Below are positions 7,534-18,343 of a stretch of DNA of 20,028 nt, piece after piece. The notes below the pieces were generated by a model. It was given only the letters and a program-made list of their open reading frames with translations, made no database searches and was not told where the DNA came from. The position numbers and the translations under genes are program-made. The stretch comes from a virus, in the IMG/VR virus record IMGVR_UViG_3300001589_000287, positions 1-20,028 of that record. The stretch is one strand, 5' to 3'. How positions within the stretch are numbered: the stretch's first letter is position 1; every line of letters starts with the position of its first letter.

Positions 7534-9576
7534 CTACGTTTGCAACTCAGGTGGAACTTGTGGCGGTGGTGGCGGTGGCGGTGGCGGCTCCTGACTTCCC
7601 CCGGCCCCCTGTGCTTCCGGCCCAGCGGGGGAGGGAGGGCTAGGCGGCGCATCAGGAGGGGGGGGAGGAGCAGGAGGTGGAAGCAAGTAGCCGCTAGCGT
7701 TTATGTCGAGAGAGTTAGCCCAATCTTTCATTAATGAGTTAAACGGTTCCGTAATACCTGAGCCTGCTAACTGGCTGAGAATAGGCCCGAGTGTTTGTAC
7801 AGCCATCTGCATTTGTTCAACACGGCTCGATTTATTTGGTTTTCGGGCAGACCCGGCTTCAACTCGGAAGAGCAACTCTCGGGTTAAAGCCACTATGTCT
7901 CTTTTAGAAATAGTCTGATACCAAGCAGCAGCACCCATTGCACCGAGAACTGGCTGAACATCTTGAGGTTCAAGAAGCCATCTTGCCGCAAGTGCTTCCC
8001 TTCTAGCAAGAAGACTCATGCAGTCCTCTAACTCATTCGCCATGTTATCTGGCCGAATAGAAATGTTTTCGTTTTTAATTTGTGCTTCAGCAGCACTTCG
8101 GAATTGCGCACGAGTGTAACCAAATACTAATTCCGACAAACCAGTACGCTGTGCAAACTGATCTAGAATTGCTTGGATAATATCCCACAGGTCTTTGTTT
8201 ACCTGTGGCATCTGGAACACAGACACAACGTCCTCAACTCGCCTGCCGAGCAACTCAGACAGTTCAATTATCTTGAACCCGCCCTCTGAAGGAGCAAGCA
8301 ACTTGTCTTTAATATCTTGGTCGGCTGCCTTTTGAACAGCAACAACTGTTTCGCAACTAGTTGCAATACGTGTAGCCAGAAACGAGAAGCACCAGTTAAG
8401 TAGCCTGAGTTCACCAATTGCTGGTTTGATATGGCTAATCGGCCAAGAATGTCCGGGCTTGCGATGAAACGCGAGCATCGTAAAGGGCCATCCTTGCGGG
8501 TCTGCGTAGAACGGTATAGGCCACGATACCCTTGATGTAAGGCTTGGTGGCAATCCGGTCTCATCAACTTCTTCTTCAAGAATAGAAGGCGGCATATTCA
8601 GAGGATAAGGAACACCTTCGCATACTACTAAGTAGCAATACCTGCCGACAGAATCAAAGAATCCCTTATTTTCTTTAGGGCTATCCTTGAACCGATCACC
8701 CATTCCAGTCTTGCTCCATATCTTATAGAACGTAACGAGATTATTAGTGGTGTCCCTCTTCTTCCTTCTGCCCTTGTACTCCTTACCCAGAGTGCTTGTG
8801 TTGTCGTCAATATGCTTTCGCAGGGCTTCTTCTGGTATTCCGTAAGTTGCGGCTACCTCCTGCACTGGCCTGCAACATTTCTTTGCACACCAAAGCATGT
8901 CGTCTTCATTATCAAAATCAGGATCAATGAGAAGGTTATCTACTGTGTCATAAAACGAACCAACCATCTTCATGGCTGGCTGCTCTTCGTTAGCAGACAC
9001 ATCCACAGAAACCATCTCTGTCCAGAATACACCGGCACCTTTTATCATTGCCTCGTTGACAACTTTACGTGCCTGCTTCTTTAGGTCTAGTTCAACAGGA
9101 CTCCAGTTTAAGTAACTGCTTAGGAGTTTTGCTGCATTTTGCCTTGACTGCCTTTCGTCTTCTTCGTTCTTGACAGTCTGCATAATCGCCATCTGATCAG
9201 GTGACGGCTGACCCATTTCACCTGAAGGCTCATCTAAGCCAAGTTGACCAAGGTCTGTGTCGTGGGCATCCATTACCGTCACTGTACGCACAGGGTTTCT
9301 GTGGTATATGACGCTCCCAAACAAATCGACTAACTCAAAGACCTTGTTCAACTGCATGCGGAACGCGGGGGGTGCAATGTTTGAATTGTACCCTCGCTCA
9401 CCCCGTGAATACGAGTCCTTCCACATCCAGTTGTGATCGCCGTCATAGAACTGACTTGCTTCTTTAGCAACGTCATCAAACGGTTTTTTATATTTCTGAG
9501 CAGCCTTGAGTTTTTTAACCCAAGTTGTCACGCACTGCTTAAGTGGGTTGTTACTTGGTAGGCTTTGTTCGTCCAC
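7534..9576 (-). CDS. Portal protein
   Basis: This 680-aa protein would form the twelve-subunit channel at the capsid vertex through which DNA is packaged and ejected. Supporting evidence: length in the range of short-tailed-phage portals, an N-terminal segment with FYDGDHNWMWKDSY and the hydrophobic FELVDLFGSVIYHRNPV, a long mixed central region, and a late helical region (about 470-600) typical of portal stem and wing. It sits one gene after the large terminase. The start codon is GTG, with GGGGTGA just upstream, and overlaps the end of the preceding gene by 26 bases. Residues 633-680 are an unusual tail of proline runs (nine in a row near the end) mixed with A, G, S and E. The assignment rests on context and general sequence character; a search should confirm it easily. 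Confidence 0.85.
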   Translation of the reverse strand: MDEQSLPSNNPLKQCVTTWVKKLKAAQKYKKPFDDVAKEASQFYDGDHNWMWKDSYSRGERGYNSNIAPPAFRMQLNKVFELVDLFGSVIYHRNPVRTVTVMDAHDTDLGQLGLDEPSGEMGQPSPDQMAIMQTVKNEEDERQSRQNAAKLLSSYLNWSPVELDLKKQARKVVNEAMIKGAGVFWTEMVSVDVSANEEQPAMKMVGSFYDTVDNLLIDPDFDNEDDMLWCAKKCCRPVQEVAATYGIPEEALRKHIDDNTSTLGKEYKGRRKKRDTTNNLVTFYKIWSKTGMGDRFKDSPKENKGFFDSVGRYCYLVVCEGVPYPLNMPPSILEEEVDETGLPPSLTSRVSWPIPFYADPQGWPFTMLAFHRKPGHSWPISHIKPAIGELRLLNWCFSFLATRIATSCETVVAVQKAADQDIKDKLLAPSEGGFKIIELSELLGRRVEDVVSVFQMPQVNKDLWDIIQAILDQFAQRTGLSELVFGYTRAQFRSAAEAQIKNENISIRPDNMANELEDCMSLLARREALAARWLLEPQDVQPVLGAMGAAAWYQTISKRDIVALTRELLFRVEAGSARKPNKSSRVEQMQMAVQTLGPILSQLAGSGITEPFNSLMKDWANSLDINASGYLLPPPAPPPPPDAPPSPPSPAGPEAQGAGGSQEPPPPPPPPPQVPPELQT
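7537..7680 (-). repeat. Proline-codon low-complexity tract, portal C-terminus
   Basis: On the coding strand this is a run of CCA/CCG/CCC/CCT codons that encodes portal residues 633-680, including runs of five and nine prolines separated by a G/A/S/E-rich spacer. Such tracts change length easily by slippage. Confidence 0.8.
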
Positions 9577-9877
9577 TGCTCACCCCTGAAGTTAAGTCGC
9601 GGTATGTTTTAGTTATCGTTGCAAAATCCCACGCCCCAAGGTCTTCCCATCCATGATCTCCCTGCAATGCTGGGTCATCTCTGTGATGGGCAGACGAATG
9701 AACCGTGGCAAAACCTGCGGGCGAGAACGTCAGAATGCTTATGGTCGTATCACCCGGCTTAGATGCTACAAAACCTATCTGTGGGTTCTTAAAGGTTTGC
9801 CAGTCCGAACTGAACAACACCACATCTCCAATGTTTGGGATAGGCATTGTCCATTTCTTTGTCTCAACTGTACTCAT
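9551..9877 (-). CDS. Small conserved-looking protein between terminase and portal
   Basis: About 108 aa, function not recognised. The first half looks like a small beta barrel (MPIPNIGDVVLF...PQIGFVASKPGDTTISILTF), and the second half carries HHRDDPALQGDHGWEDLGAWDF, rich in H, D and W as if binding metal or a partner protein. AAGGAGG precedes two adjacent ATGs. The second (9877) is spaced five bases from it and the first (9880) only two, so I prefer the second. The gene overlaps the end of the large terminase and the start of the portal, which ties its translation to both. A packaging accessory or portal-associated role is a guess from position. Confidence 0.75.
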   Translation of the reverse strand: MSTVETKKWTMPIPNIGDVVLFSSDWQTFKNPQIGFVASKPGDTTISILTFSPAGFATVHSSAHHRDDPALQGDHGWEDLGAWDFATITKTYRDLTSGVSSGRTKPTK

Positions 9878-11573
9878 CATTTCCTCCTTGCGGCCCTAAG
9901 TAAACATGACCGGGGTCACCTTGCCCCTGTCTCTTCTTTCTTTCATGCTGCCATTTTACCCACCAAGGCTCCTTCTCGCCGTTACGAATTGGTGGTGCAT
10001 GGTAATGTGGGCGATATGCACACAAATACTCAAGACATTGGCACAAATGTACCTCGCCTTTTGCATTTGGCTTGTCCGTGACAATAGGCGTACCAGATAT
10101 GTAATTGACCAGTTTCCTGTATCTTTTGAGTTCCCTGACTAAATCCGGGCAGGAGTTTTCTAAGACTCTGAGAGTAGGCTTACCTTCCGGCTTAATGTGT
10201 AGCGATACTCGGGTAGACTCGGTACGTGCTTGTATGTCATCGCAGCCCGCCAAAAAACTAGCCCCAGTAATCTCGGATCGCACCCCATTCTTAACAAGTT
10301 GTTCTGTGTACTGCTCTGAAGGCAATCTACCACTACCGAGGTCTCTGAGCCTCGCACCATGAGCATCGATTATAAACGCATGGAAGTGCCAATCACGAAC
10401 CTTTTCGGTAAACCTCTTTCCGAATATTGTGGCGTTGCACTGGCGTAGGTACAATTGATCATAGCACAGGACGAACGATTCGTCGGGGGGAACAGCCGCA
10501 AATAGGATTGCAGTGACTGCGTGTCCGGGGTCAATGACGGCGTACCTCGTCCACTCATGAGGTATCATGCCGTTAGGCAACTCCTCTTTAGACATCCCGT
10601 GTATCCGCATATCAAAGTTTGGGTACATCAGTATGCTGTCCGTGACGAAGTCACCCTCGGCACGCATCCTCAATATGTCGTCGCCTAGAGCGGCCCATCT
10701 CTCAATACTCTTTTTCTTTTCTTCTTGATCCAAGTATGGGTTGTCGAGGAATCGTAACTTAAACTGTTGTATGTTTGATTCTTTACCTAGGTCTGCTGTC
10801 GAGGCTTCCGCTCGTTCCTTAAGACCAAGCAGTGCATTGTTTGTACTGTGCGGCATAGCAGACCAACACATCATTCCTTTGCGGTCAACTATACGAGCCT
10901 GCATTTCAGGCACCCACCTCTCGTCCGAAATATCTTCATCGATATGGACGCGATTACAATTGAAGCCTTGTACAGGCTCGCCTTCGCTAGAGAAGAAATA
11001 TATCTGCCAGCCATTGTGCAATGTGCAACGCTGCATGTAGTTAGCACTACGCAACAACCATGACGTATTTTTAATCATACGTTTGGGGATTAGTGCTGGT
11101 GCTGGCTTTGCTTCGTTCTTTCGTTCTTCATCTGTTTCAGGATTAAACGCCCTCCACTCCCCACTCTTCTCGTCTTTTATAATCTTGAACGCACCTTCAT
11201 TGAATAAGTAAGGTACTGCGACCAGTCCGATATGTTTCCAGTCTTTGCCAACTACTACCAGAATGCCGTCTTTCTCTGGGTATTTCTTGAAAGGGTCTTG
11301 GCCCGTAACAGCCCTAGCATCTTCAACAAAAGTGCATAACGATTTGCCTGATCTATTACCACCGATGACAAGTACTTCACTTGCTTTTGTTCTGTGTACC
11401 TCTGCCTGATTTGGATTTGGCTGGTACAACTTCAGTGCCTCTACCTGCCTCTCCTTCAGTTCCTGCTGTACGTCCTTCAAATGATCCATCTGATGCTGGG
11501 TCATACTCGATTGAACGGACACCTTCTTCGGCTGCACCTTCGGATGTTTCTTCTGTCGTTTCCGCTGTGGCAT
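9864..11573 (-). CDS. terL: Terminase large subunit (packaging ATPase-nuclease)
   Basis: This 569-aa protein is the motor that cuts concatemeric DNA and pumps it through the portal. Walker A is GGNRSGKS at 71-78. Walker B with catalytic glutamate is RVHIDE at 208-213 (DEDI follows), and the coupling motif is probably WSAMPHST at 237-244. The nuclease half shows the first acidic site in AVIDPG (D348) and the second in IIDAHG (D403). The third acidic site, usually in a D-A-L-R-Y-like motif, corresponds to QCLEYLCAY (512-520), so the usual Asp seems replaced. The start at 11573 has AAGGAG nine bases upstream. It makes the first 65 codons overlap the upstream gene by 197 bases in another frame. 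That N-terminus is very basic (PQRKRQKKHPK). Confidence 0.95.
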   Translation of the reverse strand: MPQRKRQKKHPKVQPKKVSVQSSMTQHQMDHLKDVQQELKERQVEALKLYQPNPNQAEVHRTKASEVLVIGGNRSGKSLCTFVEDARAVTGQDPFKKYPEKDGILVVVGKDWKHIGLVAVPYLFNEGAFKIIKDEKSGEWRAFNPETDEERKNEAKPAPALIPKRMIKNTSWLLRSANYMQRCTLHNGWQIYFFSSEGEPVQGFNCNRVHIDEDISDERWVPEMQARIVDRKGMMCWSAMPHSTNNALLGLKERAEASTADLGKESNIQQFKLRFLDNPYLDQEEKKKSIERWAALGDDILRMRAEGDFVTDSILMYPNFDMRIHGMSKEELPNGMIPHEWTRYAVIDPGHAVTAILFAAVPPDESFVLCYDQLYLRQCNATIFGKRFTEKVRDWHFHAFIIDAHGARLRDLGSGRLPSEQYTEQLVKNGVRSEITGASFLAGCDDIQARTESTRVSLHIKPEGKPTLRVLENSCPDLVRELKRYRKLVNYISGTPIVTDKPNAKGEVHLCQCLEYLCAYRPHYHAPPIRNGEKEPWWVKWQHERKKRQGQGDPGHVYLGPQGGNDEYS

Positions 11574-12084
11574 CGATAGTCACTCCTTTGAAATGCATGG
11601 CTGCCTCGTTCAGGCGAGCGTCAAGTTCTTGCTCTAGTTCATCTTCACTCCAGAACTGTAGTGGCTTCTTAGTGCCGCCCGCTTCTACATTCCTAGTTAC
11701 CATTCGGCACATGGTTTCAAGCAACTTGCTCCTTTGGCTGCTACCCGGCGGGCTGTCCCAATATTGCTTGACCATAACAGAGGAAAATCCTGAGACTCCC
11801 CCGAAGTACGACATTACCTTCTCTACCACCTCTGCGGTGTGGGGTATGTTGTTGCCGCCTTTAGAAATTGTAGCAAGAAACACATCTACGCCAGACTGCT
11901 CTATCTCTTGCAGTGCCAACTTCTTATTAAGTTTGTTTTCTTCAATCCTTTTCTGCTTTGTAATGTACTCACACTTCTTACAGACATTGCTATACGACTC
12001 CTTGCCGTCCCTCGTTCGATGACGGAAGTTATCAATGTCTATATCTTTTTCTTCAGAGCATTTAATACAAAGTTTCTTTTTCAT
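11377..12084 (-). CDS. Zinc-finger protein in the small-terminase position
   Basis: A 235-aa protein directly upstream of the large terminase. Residues 1-40 form a four-cysteine finger (C6-x2-C9 ... C35-x2-C38), a type often found at the N-terminus of phage DNA-binding proteins. A helical middle follows (KGGNNIPHTAEVVEKVMSYFGG, then a WDSPPGSS turn and a further helix), then FWSEDELEQELDARLNEAA. The last 60 residues are acidic and low in complexity. Position and DNA-binding finger suggest a small terminase or terminase accessory protein, but no homology is proven. I chose the ATG at 12084, which starts right at the finger. A GTG at 12144 would add 20 residues encoded by a strong hairpin, and neither start has a clear ribosome site. 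The 3' end overlaps terL by 197 bases. Confidence 0.7.
   Translation of the reverse strand: MKKKLCIKCSEEKDIDIDNFRHRTRDGKESYSNVCKKCEYITKQKRIEENKLNKKLALQEIEQSGVDVFLATISKGGNNIPHTAEVVEKVMSYFGGVSGFSSVMVKQYWDSPPGSSQRSKLLETMCRMVTRNVEAGGTKKPLQFWSEDELEQELDARLNEAAMHFKGVTIDATAETTEETSEGAAEEGVRSIEYDPASDGSFEGRTAGTEGEAGRGTEVVPAKSKSGRGTQNKSK
11583..11588 (-). promoter_or_regulatory. Ribosome binding site that fixes the terL start
   Basis: AAGGAG on the coding strand, nine bases before the ATG at 11573 and inside the upstream gene. Later in-frame ATGs (11504, 11489) have no comparable site, so this supports the long overlap between the two genes. Confidence 0.65.
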
Positions 12085-12099
12085 ATATATATATGCTAA

Positions 12100-12126
12100 C
12101 AGCCCACAGGGGGTGCCTGCGGGCTG
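12100..12126 (-). promoter_or_regulatory. Strong intercistronic hairpin before the packaging module
   Basis: On the coding strand CAGCCCGCAGG and CCTGTGGGCTG pair over 11 bp (one G-U) around the five-base loop CACCC. It lies between the stop of the putative decoration gene and the ATG at 12084. What follows is TTAGCATATATATATATG, not a U-run, so a full rho-independent terminator is unlikely. An attenuator, RNA-processing site or mRNA stabiliser that separates the abundant capsid messages from terminase messages is more likely. Confidence 0.6.
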
Positions 12127-12154
12127 CTTTGCATATCCTATCACGGACTGTTCA

Positions 12155-12753: not shown

Positions 12754-13929
12754 TTAAGCAGGTGTAGAGATGCCATCGAGCATGAAGAAGTTACGAGGCG
12801 ACTTGAAACGCAAGTTGCCAAGGGTTGAACAAGCATAACGGTAGGACTGAGTTTCTTCTGAGAAGAATGGCCCTTCCGCTACCATGAGTTGATTTTCAAG
12901 GCAACGCATTTCCATGTTGCCAATTGAAAGTCCGTAACCCTTACCCGCTGGGCAAGCGTACTCACTCGTTACTTCAACGCCATCAATAGTGATTGCGTCA
13001 TTGAATCCTAGAGCCTTCAGGCCGTTCTCCTTACTGACTACAATTCGCTCTTGATCCTTATAGGTATTCAACAACTGAATGTAGAGGTGACGGTCAAGCA
13101 CTACAAGATCAATCTGTGCTTCGCGGGTATCATTTCGTTTGCACTGATGAATACCTTCACGAACAGCAAAGACGCAATTGCTCTTCCAGTTTTGTCCACC
13201 ACCAGCACCGTTAAACGATGTTGCATTGTAGTTGACAATAATTGGAGAATAGAAATCGAACTCTGGATCAACACCTACGTCAGGCCATTGACCAGTAGTA
13301 CCACTCATTCGACCACCACCGTAGTAACCTAGTTTGGTACTAAGACCTGCATAGGTATCATTCGGGTGAGCGAAACGATCTCCGGTGCCAGTGAAGTAAG
13401 CAGGTGTTCCTGAACTTCCGGTGTCAACATCTGCTACGCCTGTTGCTGACTCATCAACAGTACCGTTGTACTTGAGAAAACTTTCAAGTCCGTGGAAGTC
13501 ATTCTCATGACCGGCGGCACTACCATCAGCGTATGGCTGATAGGACAGATGCTGTTCCAAACTCTCTTGGAGTCGCTCTGCCATTTTTGATGCTACATCG
13601 ACAAGGGCCTGCTGACCTCTGTTTTCAAGCATTTCTCGACGATAGATAGCATCGGTGGTCGTAAAACCACGCCAAGGCAACTCTGCCTTTTTCCACATAT
13701 TGACACGGGAGAATGTTCTTGGTGTGTCGCCAGTATTCCCTGTAACAGGAGCGTTGCGATAACGAACATTCCAGTCAAAGCCTCGGCCCGACTGGTTCAT
13801 TAAAACATTGCCGGATGACTCCAGCATTGCAAAAATTTTAAACTTACGAAATGTCGTCAACTCCTCTTCACGAAGATGCTGGACAATCGTAGTTGCGATA
13901 ACTCGGCTCCAGTCGGTTGGACTCGCCAT
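12754..13929 (-). CDS. Major capsid protein
   Basis: A 391-aa protein of typical size for an HK97-fold coat subunit. It starts with a helical N-arm (SRVIATTIVQHLREEELTTFRKFKIFAMLES). There follow an extended region with R/W-rich turns, KMAERLQESLEQHLSYQPY (the long spine-helix candidate), a glycine-rich middle, DTREAQIDLVVLDRHLYIQLLNTYKDQERI and a C-terminal FKSPRNFFMLDG. AAGGA lies about ten bases before the ATG. It follows the scaffold gene by 30 bases and precedes a putative decoration gene, the usual context. I infer the fold from length, order and helix/strand pattern. Mass spectrometry of virions would show it as the main band. Confidence 0.85.
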   Translation of the reverse strand: MASPTDWSRVIATTIVQHLREEELTTFRKFKIFAMLESSGNVLMNQSGRGFDWNVRYRNAPVTGNTGDTPRTFSRVNMWKKAELPWRGFTTTDAIYRREMLENRGQQALVDVASKMAERLQESLEQHLSYQPYADGSAAGHENDFHGLESFLKYNGTVDESATGVADVDTGSSGTPAYFTGTGDRFAHPNDTYAGLSTKLGYYGGGRMSGTTGQWPDVGVDPEFDFYSPIIVNYNATSFNGAGGGQNWKSNCVFAVREGIHQCKRNDTREAQIDLVVLDRHLYIQLLNTYKDQERIVVSKENGLKALGFNDAITIDGVEVTSEYACPAGKGYGLSIGNMEMRCLENQLMVAEGPFFSEETQSYRYACSTLGNLRFKSPRNFFMLDGISTPA

Positions 13930-15012: not shown

Positions 15013-15028
15013 AGTGTTCTCCTTTACG

Positions 15029-15048
15029 AGGTAATGTCATTATTACCT
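15029..15048 (-). promoter_or_regulatory. Inverted repeat upstream of the scaffold gene
   Basis: AGGTAAT and ATTACCT pair over 7 bp around a six-base loop, ending just before the scaffold ribosome site. On the coding strand it directly follows a C-rich run (15051-15074). There is no U-run, so it is not a standard terminator; it could be an operator or an mRNA stem. Confidence 0.45.
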
Positions 15049-15050
15049 AT

Positions 15051-15077: not shown

Positions 15078-17822
15078 TTAAATAAATGCCGGGACTTGAA
15101 AACCTCCCGCCTTTGTCCTTGGAGCAAGCACTGAGTTTTTCTTTTTTTCAGGCAGCAGGTCATCAAGAACTCCATACTGCTTACCTTGTGCGGCGGTTCT
15201 TTTCTTCTCTATTTCTTCTCTCTTCTGGTCATAACTAGGATCACTTGGCTTGACTCCAGTGACTGGGTCTGTTGCCGAGGCATCGCCCGTGAAGAACGCA
15301 GGGCCTTCTTTTGCTATGCCGCCAATGGCAGGTATACCACCCTCAATGATCATGTCTTCAGGCCCAAAGGCACCTAGTGCCGCACCTTTTAGACCATAAG
15401 GAATTGCTTTACTGGCTCCCTTGGCAAACAGTCCACCCGCTCCACCTAGACCAGCAAAGGCAACTGTTGATGGGTCTGTCCCTATTCCTTCTACTGCTTC
15501 TGGCACAGCCTTCTGGAATCCAGTCGCCGCTATCCTCATGTCTTCCTTGTCACCTAAATCAAACGGCTCGCCTGTCGTAAACTCGATCAATGGATTCTTA
15601 TTCAATACTGCATGAGTTCCATCAGATATTGCAGTAGCGAATTGTTGATTGAAATCTTCATTGGATTCCTTTTGGCCTGCATTAAACTCTTTAATCGTCT
15701 GTGCGTACTCTTCCTGCGTTAAGCCTTCAGGCATACGTCCAGTTGGCCCACGGTCTTGAGACCTACGCTGCTCTGCGTTTATTTGTCTAATCCTATCTAC
15801 CGGCATACCCGTTTCTTGTGCTATGCGACTTATCTCTAGTGGACGGAACGCCGACTCAAAGCCTGAAGTTATTCGTCCAAACGGATTCATGTTCCTTTGA
15901 TTGCCGTATACAGAATCGATAGTATTATTGAAACTATCTGTAGCGTAACGATTAAACCTTGGTTTGCCCTTGGGGTCATAGATTGACCTGTGGTCTTCAT
16001 TCAATGTACTAGGAATGTTTGACCTTCCGTACAATTCGTTTGCGTAGCCAAACCTTTTCGCTGGCTCGTCTTCCTCTGCAATGGGAAGTTGCTGTTGCTG
16101 CATACTATGAATCCCACCGATGCCAATTCCACTTGGTGCGTCCCGTGTAAACTGTGGCCTTGACGCTCCCTCCGCAGAATAAAACGAATCTTTATTACCG
16201 GCTGCTGCCAAGTCTACGCCACGCAGATATTGATGGTTCCTAAAGGCATTCTCATTCATGTAGTAGTCAGGGTTTTCTCCGGTTCGTTCTGCTATAGCGT
16301 TTGCTTCTTCTTCTGTTCTGAAAGAAGGGAGGCTGTAGTCGCCATCAAAATGATCTTGAGAAATAGTTGCTACATCGCTTATAAACCTAGGGCCTCCGGT
16401 CTGCAAGCCTCCCAATGTTCTCTCCCATGAACTAGTCATATCTGCCTCTATGTCTTTGCCGTCCGCTTGCAGTACATCTTCAGCCATAACAGCGAGGGCT
16501 ATGTTCATGCCATCTTCACGCTGGGAATCAAACCACTCCATCACCCCTTCGCCTTGATCTGGAAACTTTTCCACCATCCTTCTAGCGATGTCATCTCTAT
16601 AGCGTGGGTCTACAAGTGTCTCTGTTGCGTAGGTATGCATATTGGCTAGGTACTGCTGACCTGCTTCTGAATCCAGTCCGGGCTGGGAGTATTGAATTGC
16701 TGGTTCCTGACCTACGTCTTGTAACTCCTCTGCCAAAGCAGTCGATCTGTCGATTGGGTCAGTCACCTTAGAGATATTGTCTACTGATGACTCAATAATA
16801 TTTCCGCTCGCAGCGTCTGTTGCCCCTGCTGCTGCACCGCCAACTCCATATGTCCTTAGTTTCTTAATTAAATCTTCTGAACCGGGAAACATAACGTAGT
16901 TTCTTGACTCACCAGAATTGTTACTAGCCATCAAAGTATCATCTAGATACGTGCTTCCGGGTACACCTCCCTTCTGCAAATGCTCGGCTACACGGCGATT
17001 AGCCACTAACTCCCTAGAGCCAAGCGTATTCATAAAGTGATCTGCCCTATGCACGCCTTCTGGTACTGGAGTCATTGGGGGAAGAAACTCTTCGTTTGAG
17101 AAAGCCAGAATGCCATCGCCGGTTGCAGCACGCCCTTTCCTGTCGATGAAATCCCTAGTCTCTTTCGGCAAGTCCATGCTGGTCAACTTGTCCATGACTT
17201 GGTCGGACTGACCTTCTTGCAGTTGCATCAGTTGATCCATCTGCACATCAAGGTCAACTTCGCTCATTGTTCCCCGCATCGGGGAGAACTCAAGTTCTGC
17301 TCCACCCGGAAGGTTTAACTCATCTCTTATCTGCTGGAGCCTCTGTATATGATTCTTGTCGCCTGCGGCAGAAGCATCGTTCATTGCAATATCAATGCGT
17401 TCGTTCAAGAACTGCGGAAAGTCCTCTGTTGGCAGACCTCGAAGTCTCCTTTCCTCGACCATTGCGTCTTCGACTAACTGAGACCGAACAGTATCAAGGT
17501 CATACTGATCTTTAGGTAGATTGTGGTCTGGCGAGTAATCCATTCGCGGGACTTCAACAACCTTATTGCCAACCTTGATGCGTACCATCTGGCCTTCTTC
17601 GCCACTTAACGGGCGATATCCACCAGCAATAGCAGGATCGCCGCTGAAGTAGTGGCCCACGCCATGCATATACCCGCCCTTACCCGGCATATTAGGATCA
17701 AACTGATCGAACCTTGCGGGAGAACCGTGGTACGCACGGAGTGGCGACGTAGTTGTAGGCACTGGAGCCTTACCAGCCATGATCAAGTTAAGTAAAGTAG
17801 AAGCACTCTTGCCCTTACTCAT
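15078..17822 (-). CDS. Large virion-associated protein with N-terminal ADP-ribosyltransferase-like domain
   Basis: A 914-aa protein. Residues 28-323 match the pattern of ADP-ribosyltransferases found in phage polyvalent proteins, PARP-like with an H-Y-E triad. H32 lies in YHGSPARFDQFDP, Y58 in GVGHYFSGDPAIAGGYR, and E305 in SGESRNYVMF. Two further marks agree: MSEVDLDVQMDQLMQLQEGQSDQV (186-209, in two parts, like the family's strand followed by L-D-x-P-L-x-E-Q), and GGVPGSTYLDD (285-295). Residues 345-760 are hydrophilic and largely unassigned. About 784-840 are glycine/alanine-rich with hydrophobic stretches that could enter a membrane. The end is lysine-rich. Its place just before the scaffold suggests a protein packed in the capsid and ejected with DNA, as T4 Alt is. 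The start overlaps the upstream stop by eight bases. Activity and target are unknown. Confidence 0.78.
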   Translation of the reverse strand: MSKGKSASTLLNLIMAGKAPVPTTTSPLRAYHGSPARFDQFDPNMPGKGGYMHGVGHYFSGDPAIAGGYRPLSGEEGQMVRIKVGNKVVEVPRMDYSPDHNLPKDQYDLDTVRSQLVEDAMVEERRLRGLPTEDFPQFLNERIDIAMNDASAAGDKNHIQRLQQIRDELNLPGGAELEFSPMRGTMSEVDLDVQMDQLMQLQEGQSDQVMDKLTSMDLPKETRDFIDRKGRAATGDGILAFSNEEFLPPMTPVPEGVHRADHFMNTLGSRELVANRRVAEHLQKGGVPGSTYLDDTLMASNNSGESRNYVMFPGSEDLIKKLRTYGVGGAAAGATDAASGNIIESSVDNISKVTDPIDRSTALAEELQDVGQEPAIQYSQPGLDSEAGQQYLANMHTYATETLVDPRYRDDIARRMVEKFPDQGEGVMEWFDSQREDGMNIALAVMAEDVLQADGKDIEADMTSSWERTLGGLQTGGPRFISDVATISQDHFDGDYSLPSFRTEEEANAIAERTGENPDYYMNENAFRNHQYLRGVDLAAAGNKDSFYSAEGASRPQFTRDAPSGIGIGGIHSMQQQQLPIAEEDEPAKRFGYANELYGRSNIPSTLNEDHRSIYDPKGKPRFNRYATDSFNNTIDSVYGNQRNMNPFGRITSGFESAFRPLEISRIAQETGMPVDRIRQINAEQRRSQDRGPTGRMPEGLTQEEYAQTIKEFNAGQKESNEDFNQQFATAISDGTHAVLNKNPLIEFTTGEPFDLGDKEDMRIAATGFQKAVPEAVEGIGTDPSTVAFAGLGGAGGLFAKGASKAIPYGLKGAALGAFGPEDMIIEGGIPAIGGIAKEGPAFFTGDASATDPVTGVKPSDPSYDQKREEIEKKRTAAQGKQYGVLDDLLPEKKKNSVLAPRTKAGGFQVPAFI

Positions 17823-18195
17823 CGTTCGTAACCCACTTTCTTCGCCAAAGGATTATCTTAGCCCTGTTATCTTTACGCCTTCTCCACCACTGGCACATAA
17901 CGACAAGCAACTCAGGCAGCAGGCAATCAATGCCAATCACCCTATAGCCCTCCCACCGTTCTTCGCCGTACACACAAGCAAGCACTCGATGTACGTCCAT
18001 AGCAACATCTGCCAGACAGTCAGCCTCGTCGATTGTCATTGGCTGGGCTTGGCTTAATTTCTCTACAGGCCAATGCTGTATGGCGACAAGGATGCAATCG
18101 CAGATAGATTCTTTATCTACGGCTTCCCTACGAACTGGAAGCAAGTCCCAGCAGTATTTGCTGAACGCCGGTATGGTAGCAGTGGATTTACCCAT
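17815..18195 (-). CDS. 126-aa protein of unknown function
   Basis: I do not recognise this protein. It has several cysteines and tryptophans (CWDLLPVRREAV, CDCILVAIQHWPVEKL), an acidic middle (MTIDEADCLADVAMDVHRVLACVYGEE), a hydrophobic stretch (GIDCLLPELLVVMCQWW) and a very basic end (RRRKDNRAKIILWRRKW). The ATG at 18195 lies four bases after the previous stop with AGAAGAAG upstream. An in-frame GTG at 18222 would add nine residues but would overlap the previous gene, so I prefer the ATG. It overlaps the 914-codon gene by eight bases. That overlap and the non-random segments favour a real gene; a small internal head protein or accessory factor is possible. Confidence 0.6.
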   Translation of the reverse strand: MGKSTATIPAFSKYCWDLLPVRREAVDKESICDCILVAIQHWPVEKLSQAQPMTIDEADCLADVAMDVHRVLACVYGEERWEGYRVIGIDCLLPELLVVMCQWWRRRKDNRAKIILWRRKWVTNDE

Positions 18196-18199
18196 TCGA

Positions 18200-18343
18200 C
18201 TACTTCTTCTTGCACGACTCACACTTGCAACCCTTTTTGCTACGGCCCTTCCCCTTGCTGTAACCAGATTTCATTTTAACGTATGAACTATCGAACTTGT
18301 CTTTAAGTTTTTCGCCTTCAGTTTTCGGTACGCCTTTTGGCAT
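18200..18343 (-). CDS. 47-aa lysine-rich protein with C-terminal cysteine cluster
   Basis: A small gene with a strong ribosome site (AGGAGA five bases before the ATG). The protein starts MPKGVPKTEGEKLKDKFDSS, continues with KMKSGYSKGKGRSKKG, and ends CKCESCKKK. The three cysteines and heavy lysine content suggest a metal or nucleic-acid contact. It is the first gene after the terminator at 18392-18439, so it opens the capsid transcription unit. Its stop is four bases from the next ATG. Function unknown; the case for a real gene is the ribosome site, spacing and conserved-looking basic composition. Confidence 0.7.
   Translation of the reverse strand: MPKGVPKTEGEKLKDKFDSSYVKMKSGYSKGKGRSKKGCKCESCKKK

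What the first reader, a model, noticed from the sequence alone, without database searches (positions are those of the whole stretch)
16854..17741. ADP-ribosyltransferase-like domain on a probable capsid-packaged protein
Residues 28-323 of the 914-aa protein show an H-Y-E-type ADP-ribosyltransferase pattern (H32, Y58, E305) with the secondary marks of the phage polyvalent-protein type. Seen in sequence: the motifs and their order. Known: T4 packages the ADP-ribosyltransferase Alt and injects it to modify host RNA polymerase, and related domains occur in MuF-type phage toxins. Inference: this lytic-style gene cluster carries an ejected effector fused to a large internal protein next to the scaffold. 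That would be a host-takeover or anti-defence system in an uncharacterised phage group.
Basis: partly seen in the sequence, partly recalled or inferred. Interest (0 to 1): 0.75.

Follow-up and report, generated by a model that had tools for sequence, protein, structure and literature searches.

The report
Swappable NAD-enzyme domain on phage head-gene protein
An uncultured tailed phage carries, at the start of a large protein encoded beside its capsid scaffold, an enzyme-like domain of the ADP-ribosyltransferase kind; related phages gain, lose or swap that piece while keeping the rest, which looks like an exchangeable cargo slot for proteins delivered into the host cell.

Summary
The ADP-ribosyltransferase (ART) domain is real. 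A profile built only from other phages matches residues 24-335 of the 914-aa protein at 118 bits; the best of 1000 shuffles scores 7. It belongs with Pfam ART-PolyVal, although the window copy falls just below Pfam's cut-off (28.5 against 31.2 bits). H32 and Y58 are invariant in 51 homologues. E305 is not (1 of 51). The invariant residue at the start of strand 5 is N308 (51 of 51), so the signature is H-Y-N, not H-Y-E.

The gene fills a conserved slot between a 135-aa gene and the scaffold-capsid genes. In 20 related phages with a complete slot, 19 keep a homologous C-terminal part; four have the ART, two fused and two as a separate upstream gene. The closest kin (96% identical capsid protein) lack it. 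Of 63 distinct loci from an ART-based scan of viral contigs, 40 lie upstream of this same scaffold-capsid cassette.

Best reading: a modular virion cargo protein with an optional ART effector, a variant of the known head-packaged ART theme. Packaging, ejection and activity are inferred, not shown. The window copy is the most divergent of its family and may be inactive.

The parts
15078..17822 (-). 914-aa slot protein P0001: N-terminal ART domain, middle region, conserved C-terminal module
   Evidence: ORF and translation; homologues in the same slot
16818..17753 (-). ART domain, residues 24-335
   Evidence: 118.5 bits with a profile from other phages only; ART-PolyVal E 2.9e-6; AlphaFold model matches ART-PolyVal viral models at E 3.5e-13
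17727..17729 (-). H32, strand 1, invariant
   Evidence: 51 of 51; strand 28-34 in the model
17649..17651 (-). Y58, strand 2, invariant
   Evidence: 51 of 51; strand 57-60
16899..16901 (-). N308, start of strand 5, invariant; the position that holds E/D/Q in canonical H-Y-[EDQ] ARTs
   Evidence: 51 of 51; strand 307-311
16908..16910 (-).
   Evidence: E in 1 of 51 at this distance from N308
15210..16379 (-). Conserved C-terminal module, residues 482-871, with Gly/Ala-rich hydrophobic stretch around residues 785-833
   Evidence: iterated profile search of slot proteins; hydropathy
17815..18222 (-). 135-aa gene P0011 marking the 5' side of the slot; overlaps P0001 by 8 nt
   Evidence: homologues upstream of the slot; overlap ATGAGTAA
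13960..15012 (-). Probable scaffold protein P0002 (by position and composition), 3' side of the slot
   Evidence: homologues next to the capsid gene; no family match
12754..13929 (-). Major capsid protein P0003
   Evidence: phrog_9953 major head protein E 2.1e-11; NCBIfam capsid_maj_Podo E 1.6e-20, below cut-off
9864..11573 (-). Terminase large subunit P0006
   Evidence: tblastn to annotated terminases, 24-25% identity
7534..9576 (-). Portal protein P0007
   Evidence: phrog_156 E 3e-6

Best explanation
P0001 is a modular virion-cargo protein. Its C-terminal module, conserved across the phage group, is most likely an internal head or ejection protein made with the scaffold and capsid and taken into the prohead. 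Its N-terminal ART domain is an optional effector carried along: after ejection with the DNA it binds NAD+ (H32, Y58, with N308 at the strand-5 position) and most likely transfers ADP-ribose to a host macromolecule, to help takeover or counter a defence. The ART-type domain and the slot's modularity are shown by sequence comparison and structure prediction. Packaging, ejection, NAD+ use and target are inferred.
For: Domain: 118.5 bits against best shuffle 7.4; 50 of 53 family members match ART-PolyVal; the window model matches ART-PolyVal viral models at E 3.5e-13; a family model of pLDDT 89.4 has RES toxin 6gw6, an ART-fold enzyme, as top PDB hit, not significant (E 0.66). Slot: P0011 homologue - variable gene(s) - scaffold - capsid in 20 related phages, C-module in 19, ART in 4, two fused and two as an adjacent gene. 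Linkage: 40 of 63 distinct ART loci found by ART sequence lie upstream of this cassette, median 353 nt. Turnover: capsid and terminase 92-96% identical to L002 and L003, which have a different N-terminus and no ART; at least 4 gains or losses on the capsid tree. Parallel: phiGT1 gp5, an ART protein, lies two genes upstream of that phage's scaffold. Literature: about 44% of phage ARTs lie in contexts suggesting head packaging (PMC9503650). Operon: 8-nt overlap with P0011, no terminator-like site found between P0001 and the scaffold.
Against: No virion proteomics. The C-module matches no known ejection protein. No acidic residue is conserved at the start of strand 5. The window ART is the most divergent of 51 (mean identity 26%) and differs at several otherwise conserved positions, e.g. 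Y187S, D202Q, R301N. No significant match to a solved ART structure. The ART scan used patterns drawn from this phage group, so the 40 of 63 is partly biased.
Confidence: 0.55

Rival explanations
1. The window's ART is a degenerate, inactive copy kept as a structural or binding part of an internal virion protein.
For: Most divergent member (mean identity 26%, maximum 30%) with changes at conserved columns such as Y187S, D202Q, R301N and two gaps before G47; Pfam score below cut-off.
Against: H32, Y58, Y69, Y292, D294 and N308 are all kept; the reading frame is intact over 914 codons.
Confidence: 0.2
2. The domain consumes NAD+ (NADase or NAD+ phosphorylase, as RES-type ART-fold toxins do) rather than modifying a macromolecule.
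For: Top PDB fold hit of the family model is the RES toxin 6gw6, with 9r35 also listed; one member matches Pfam RES at E 0.0077; the strand-5 residue is Asn, not an acid.
Against: Fold hits are not significant; H and Y motifs match ART-PolyVal in 50 of 53 members; viruses are poor in NADase-type ARTs according to PMC9503650.
Confidence: 0.15
3. The protein is a late, non-virion enzyme that acts in the infected cell; its place beside the scaffold only gives late expression.
For: No proteomics; small separate ART genes also occur in the slot, so fusion is not required.
Against: A C-module is kept in 19 of 20 slots and is the fusion partner; large proteins of other phages carry the same ART, e.g. 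vir555 near an annotated internal virion protein and L131 with LPD3 and ddrB-ParB domains.
Confidence: 0.15

Closest known systems
ART-PolyVal (Pfam PF18760; Tox-ART-HYD2 clade) of phage polyvalent proteins (Iyer et al. 2017, PMC5512222)
   Same: H in strand 1, Y in strand 2, N-terminal motif YHGSP..F..F and G.G.YF; phage head or internal-protein context
   Different: Reported signature is H-Y-D; here strand 5 starts with an invariant Asn and holds no conserved acid; window copy below Pfam cut-off; about 310 aa owing to a helical insert
Sulfitobacter phage phiGT1 gp5 (QLB38217.1)
   Same: ART-PolyVal-like domain (E 1e-6), gene two places upstream of the scaffold
   Different: No blastp likeness of its portal, scaffold or capsid to the window; 387 aa, different N-terminal part, no C-module
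T4 Alt
   Same: Proposed role: packaged ART injected with DNA
   Different: R-S-E clade, not the H-Y clade (PMC5512222); no sequence relation seen
Large polyvalent proteins (LPD, ddrB-ParB, MPTase domains)
   Same: L131, 3736 aa, carries the same ART with LPD3 and ddrB-ParB
   Different: P0001 has one recognisable domain plus a C-module of no known family
RES toxins (Xre-RES, PDB 6gw6, 9r35)
   Same: Weak fold likeness, ART superfamily; non-acidic strand-5 residue (own knowledge)
   Different: Different strand-1 motif; toxin-antitoxin context; fold match not significant

Membership tests
ART-PolyVal (PF18760) | Profile match above curated cut-off | tested here: not met
   28.5 bits against 31.2; other members tested singly also fall below it, 50 of 53 at E <= 0.01
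ART-PolyVal (PF18760) | His in strand 1 and Tyr in strand 2 | tested here: met
   H32 and Y58 in 51 of 51, in strands 28-34 and 57-60
ART-PolyVal (PF18760) | Asp in strand 5 (H-Y-D, PMC5512222) | tested here: not met
   Strand 307-311 holds invariant N308; position 313 is Pro in 47 of 51; the invariant acids D294 and E316 (E/D) flank the strand
ART superfamily fold | Significant match to a solved ART structure | tested here: inconclusive
   RES 6gw6 top hit but E 0.66; PARP1 E 3.9; significant only to predicted ART-PolyVal viral models
ART superfamily fold | H, Y and third residue meet in one NAD+ pocket | not testable with these tools
   Model coordinates not available
Phage polyvalent proteins | Two or more unrelated domains with disparate activities in one polypeptide | tested here: not met
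   Only the ART is recognised in P0001 by Pfam, and nothing by PHROGs, NCBIfam or PADLOC
Head-packaged ejected effector | Present in the virion | not testable with these tools
   No proteomics; phiGT1 virion data are in Table S3 of PMC10386132, which could not be opened
T4 Alt/VIP2 ARTs | R-S-E active site | tested here: not met
   His and Tyr at strands 1 and 2; no Alt family match
MuF-type toxins | MuF domain fused to the effector | tested here: not met
   No MuF match in Pfam or PHROGs

The most novel reading that the evidence does not exclude
The gene between P0011 and the scaffold is a dedicated effector bay: one conserved C-terminal packaging and ejection module onto which unrelated N-terminal effectors are swapped (ART here, unknown domains in kin), so that the other N-termini are a set of undescribed injected effectors; the ART is an H-Y-N enzyme with a chemistry not yet described for phage ARTs.
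Probability: 0.3. Interest if true: 0.65.

Novelty: new variant of a known kind. Interest (0 to 1): 0.42.

Why it matters
If right, the slot marks by position alone the protein that an uncultured phage group delivers first into its hosts, and gives a way to find new injected effectors by comparing close relatives. The invariant Asn in place of the catalytic acid makes a direct biochemical question: transferase, NADase or dead enzyme.

Tried and rejected
E305 as catalytic residue: rejected by 51 homologues. Single-sequence scan of viral contigs with P0001: nothing. PDB sequence search with P0001: nothing; with the ART profile: only viral gp41 coiled-coil constructs in the helical insert, judged chance. 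PDB fold search of the window model: nothing significant. C-module: no Pfam, PHROGs or PDB relative; a tape-measure protein at E 0.42 is noise. Ntox27 hit of P0001 (E 0.013) judged too weak. T4 Alt or MuF membership rejected. Host: only three metagenome-assembled contigs found (two labelled Planctomycetota, one Ignavibacteriales); binning errors are possible, so no host is claimed.

Full report
What is there. The window is a 20,028-base IMG/VR virus record. All long genes run on the minus strand, in the order P0012 - P0011 - P0001 (914 aa) - probable scaffold P0002 - capsid P0003 - P0004 - P0005 - terminase P0006 - portal P0007 - P0008 - adaptor-like P0009 - very large P0010. The capsid, portal and adaptor assignments rest on weak but consistent profile matches, and the terminase on distant tblastn hits. 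The capsid and scaffold find nothing in 50,697 phage records, so the group has no detectable isolate in that collection.

The ART domain is real. Pfam ART-PolyVal matches residues 26-81 at E 2.9e-6, just under its cut-off. Homologues in related phages were found by their capsid and terminase, and many more by an ART-based scan. A profile of 46 ARTs from phages outside the window's clade matches residues 24-335 at 118.5 bits, while the best of 1000 shuffles of P0001 reaches 7.4. Fifty of 53 members match ART-PolyVal. AlphaFold gives a moderate model for the window copy (pLDDT 71.5) that matches predicted viral ART-PolyVal proteins at E 3.5e-13, and a good model for a central member (L109, pLDDT 89.4, pTM 0.82). 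Against solved structures there is no significant hit; the top one is the RES toxin, an ART-fold enzyme, at E 0.66. The fold assignment therefore rests on sequence profiles and predicted structures.

The active-site claim needs correcting. In 51 aligned homologues H32 and Y58 are invariant. E305 lies in a small insertion and is unique to the window at that spacing; N308, at the start of strand 307-311, is invariant. That is the position of the catalytic acid in H-Y-[EDQ] ARTs (strand order from PMC5512222; correspondence to the PARP glutamate from own knowledge). The reported strand-5 Asp of polyvalent ARTs is not seen: position 313 is Pro in 47 of 51. D294 and E316 (E or D in all) are the invariant acids nearby. 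The window copy is the most divergent member and departs at several conserved columns.

The slot. Between P0011 homologues and the scaffold, related phages carry one to several variable genes. Iterated profile search shows that nearly all encode a homologous C-terminal module of about 310-415 residues. Of 20 phages found by capsid or terminase with a complete slot, 19 have the C-module and 4 the ART: fused in L043 and L047, separate and upstream in L030 and L035. L026 carries instead a separate cytosine DNA methyltransferase gene in the slot. The two closest relatives share 92-96% identity with the window in capsid and terminase but have unrelated N-termini and only 31-39% identity in part of the C-module. 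On a capsid tree the ART label needs at least 4 changes and is as scattered as random. Fusion and adjacency of the same two parts, with fast turnover of one, is the pattern of a modular cargo protein.

Linkage outside the clade. Of 63 distinct ART loci from the ART-based scan, 40 have a homologue of the window's scaffold downstream, at a median of 353 nt; most belong to a second branch with about 55% capsid identity, where the ART is a separate gene. The scan patterns came from the window's own clade, so the fraction is biased, but that second branch was not in the query. Among named phages the ART occurs in phiGT1 gp5, two genes upstream of a scaffold with no blastp likeness to the window's, and in a 1974-aa protein of vir555 near an annotated internal virion protein. 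In an unnamed contig it lies with LPD3 and ddrB-ParB domains in a 3736-aa polyvalent protein (L131).

How it most likely works. Shown: ART-type domain, conserved slot, modular exchange, 8-nt overlap with the upstream gene. Inferred: late co-expression with the scaffold; incorporation into the prohead through the C-module, which has a Gly/Ala-rich hydrophobic stretch in most members, as ejection proteins often do (own knowledge); ejection with DNA; NAD+-dependent modification of a host target. Similar roles were proposed for head-linked phage ARTs in general (PMC5512222, PMC9503650), so the idea is not new. New are the close tie to this cassette, the swap within one phage group, and the H-Y-N signature.

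Verdict. Observation partly confirmed, interpretation partly supported; a new variant of a known kind, of moderate interest.

Noticed in passing
window 15024-15049, minus strand: A hairpin (AGGTAAT-AATGAC-ATTACCT) sits just before the scaffold's ribosome-binding site; related loci fold a hairpin near the same place with different sequence (z -1.8 in the window, -2.8 to -4.4 in five relatives).
   Followed up: partly
L105, L110, L152: Two ART genes lie near each other or in tandem upstream of the scaffold.
   Followed up: no
L026:1734-2642: A cytosine-5 DNA methyltransferase gene sits in the same slot (Pfam PF00145 E 1.1e-32).
   Followed up: partly
L018, L020, L025, L026 slot proteins: 1355-1420-aa proteins share an N-terminal motif KPGPGIYSRLERAV; L018, L020 and L026, which were scanned, have no Pfam match.
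   Followed up: no
window 7534-9576: The portal protein ends in a long proline-rich tail.
   Followed up: no
window 11377-12144 and 9864-11573: P0005, possibly the small terminase subunit by position, overlaps the large subunit by about 200 nt in another frame; a similar overlap recurs in relatives.
   Followed up: no
L169, L170, L171: Capsid relatives occur in contigs binned as Planctomycetota (two) and Ignavibacteriales (one); L170 also has the ART upstream of its scaffold.
   Followed up: partly
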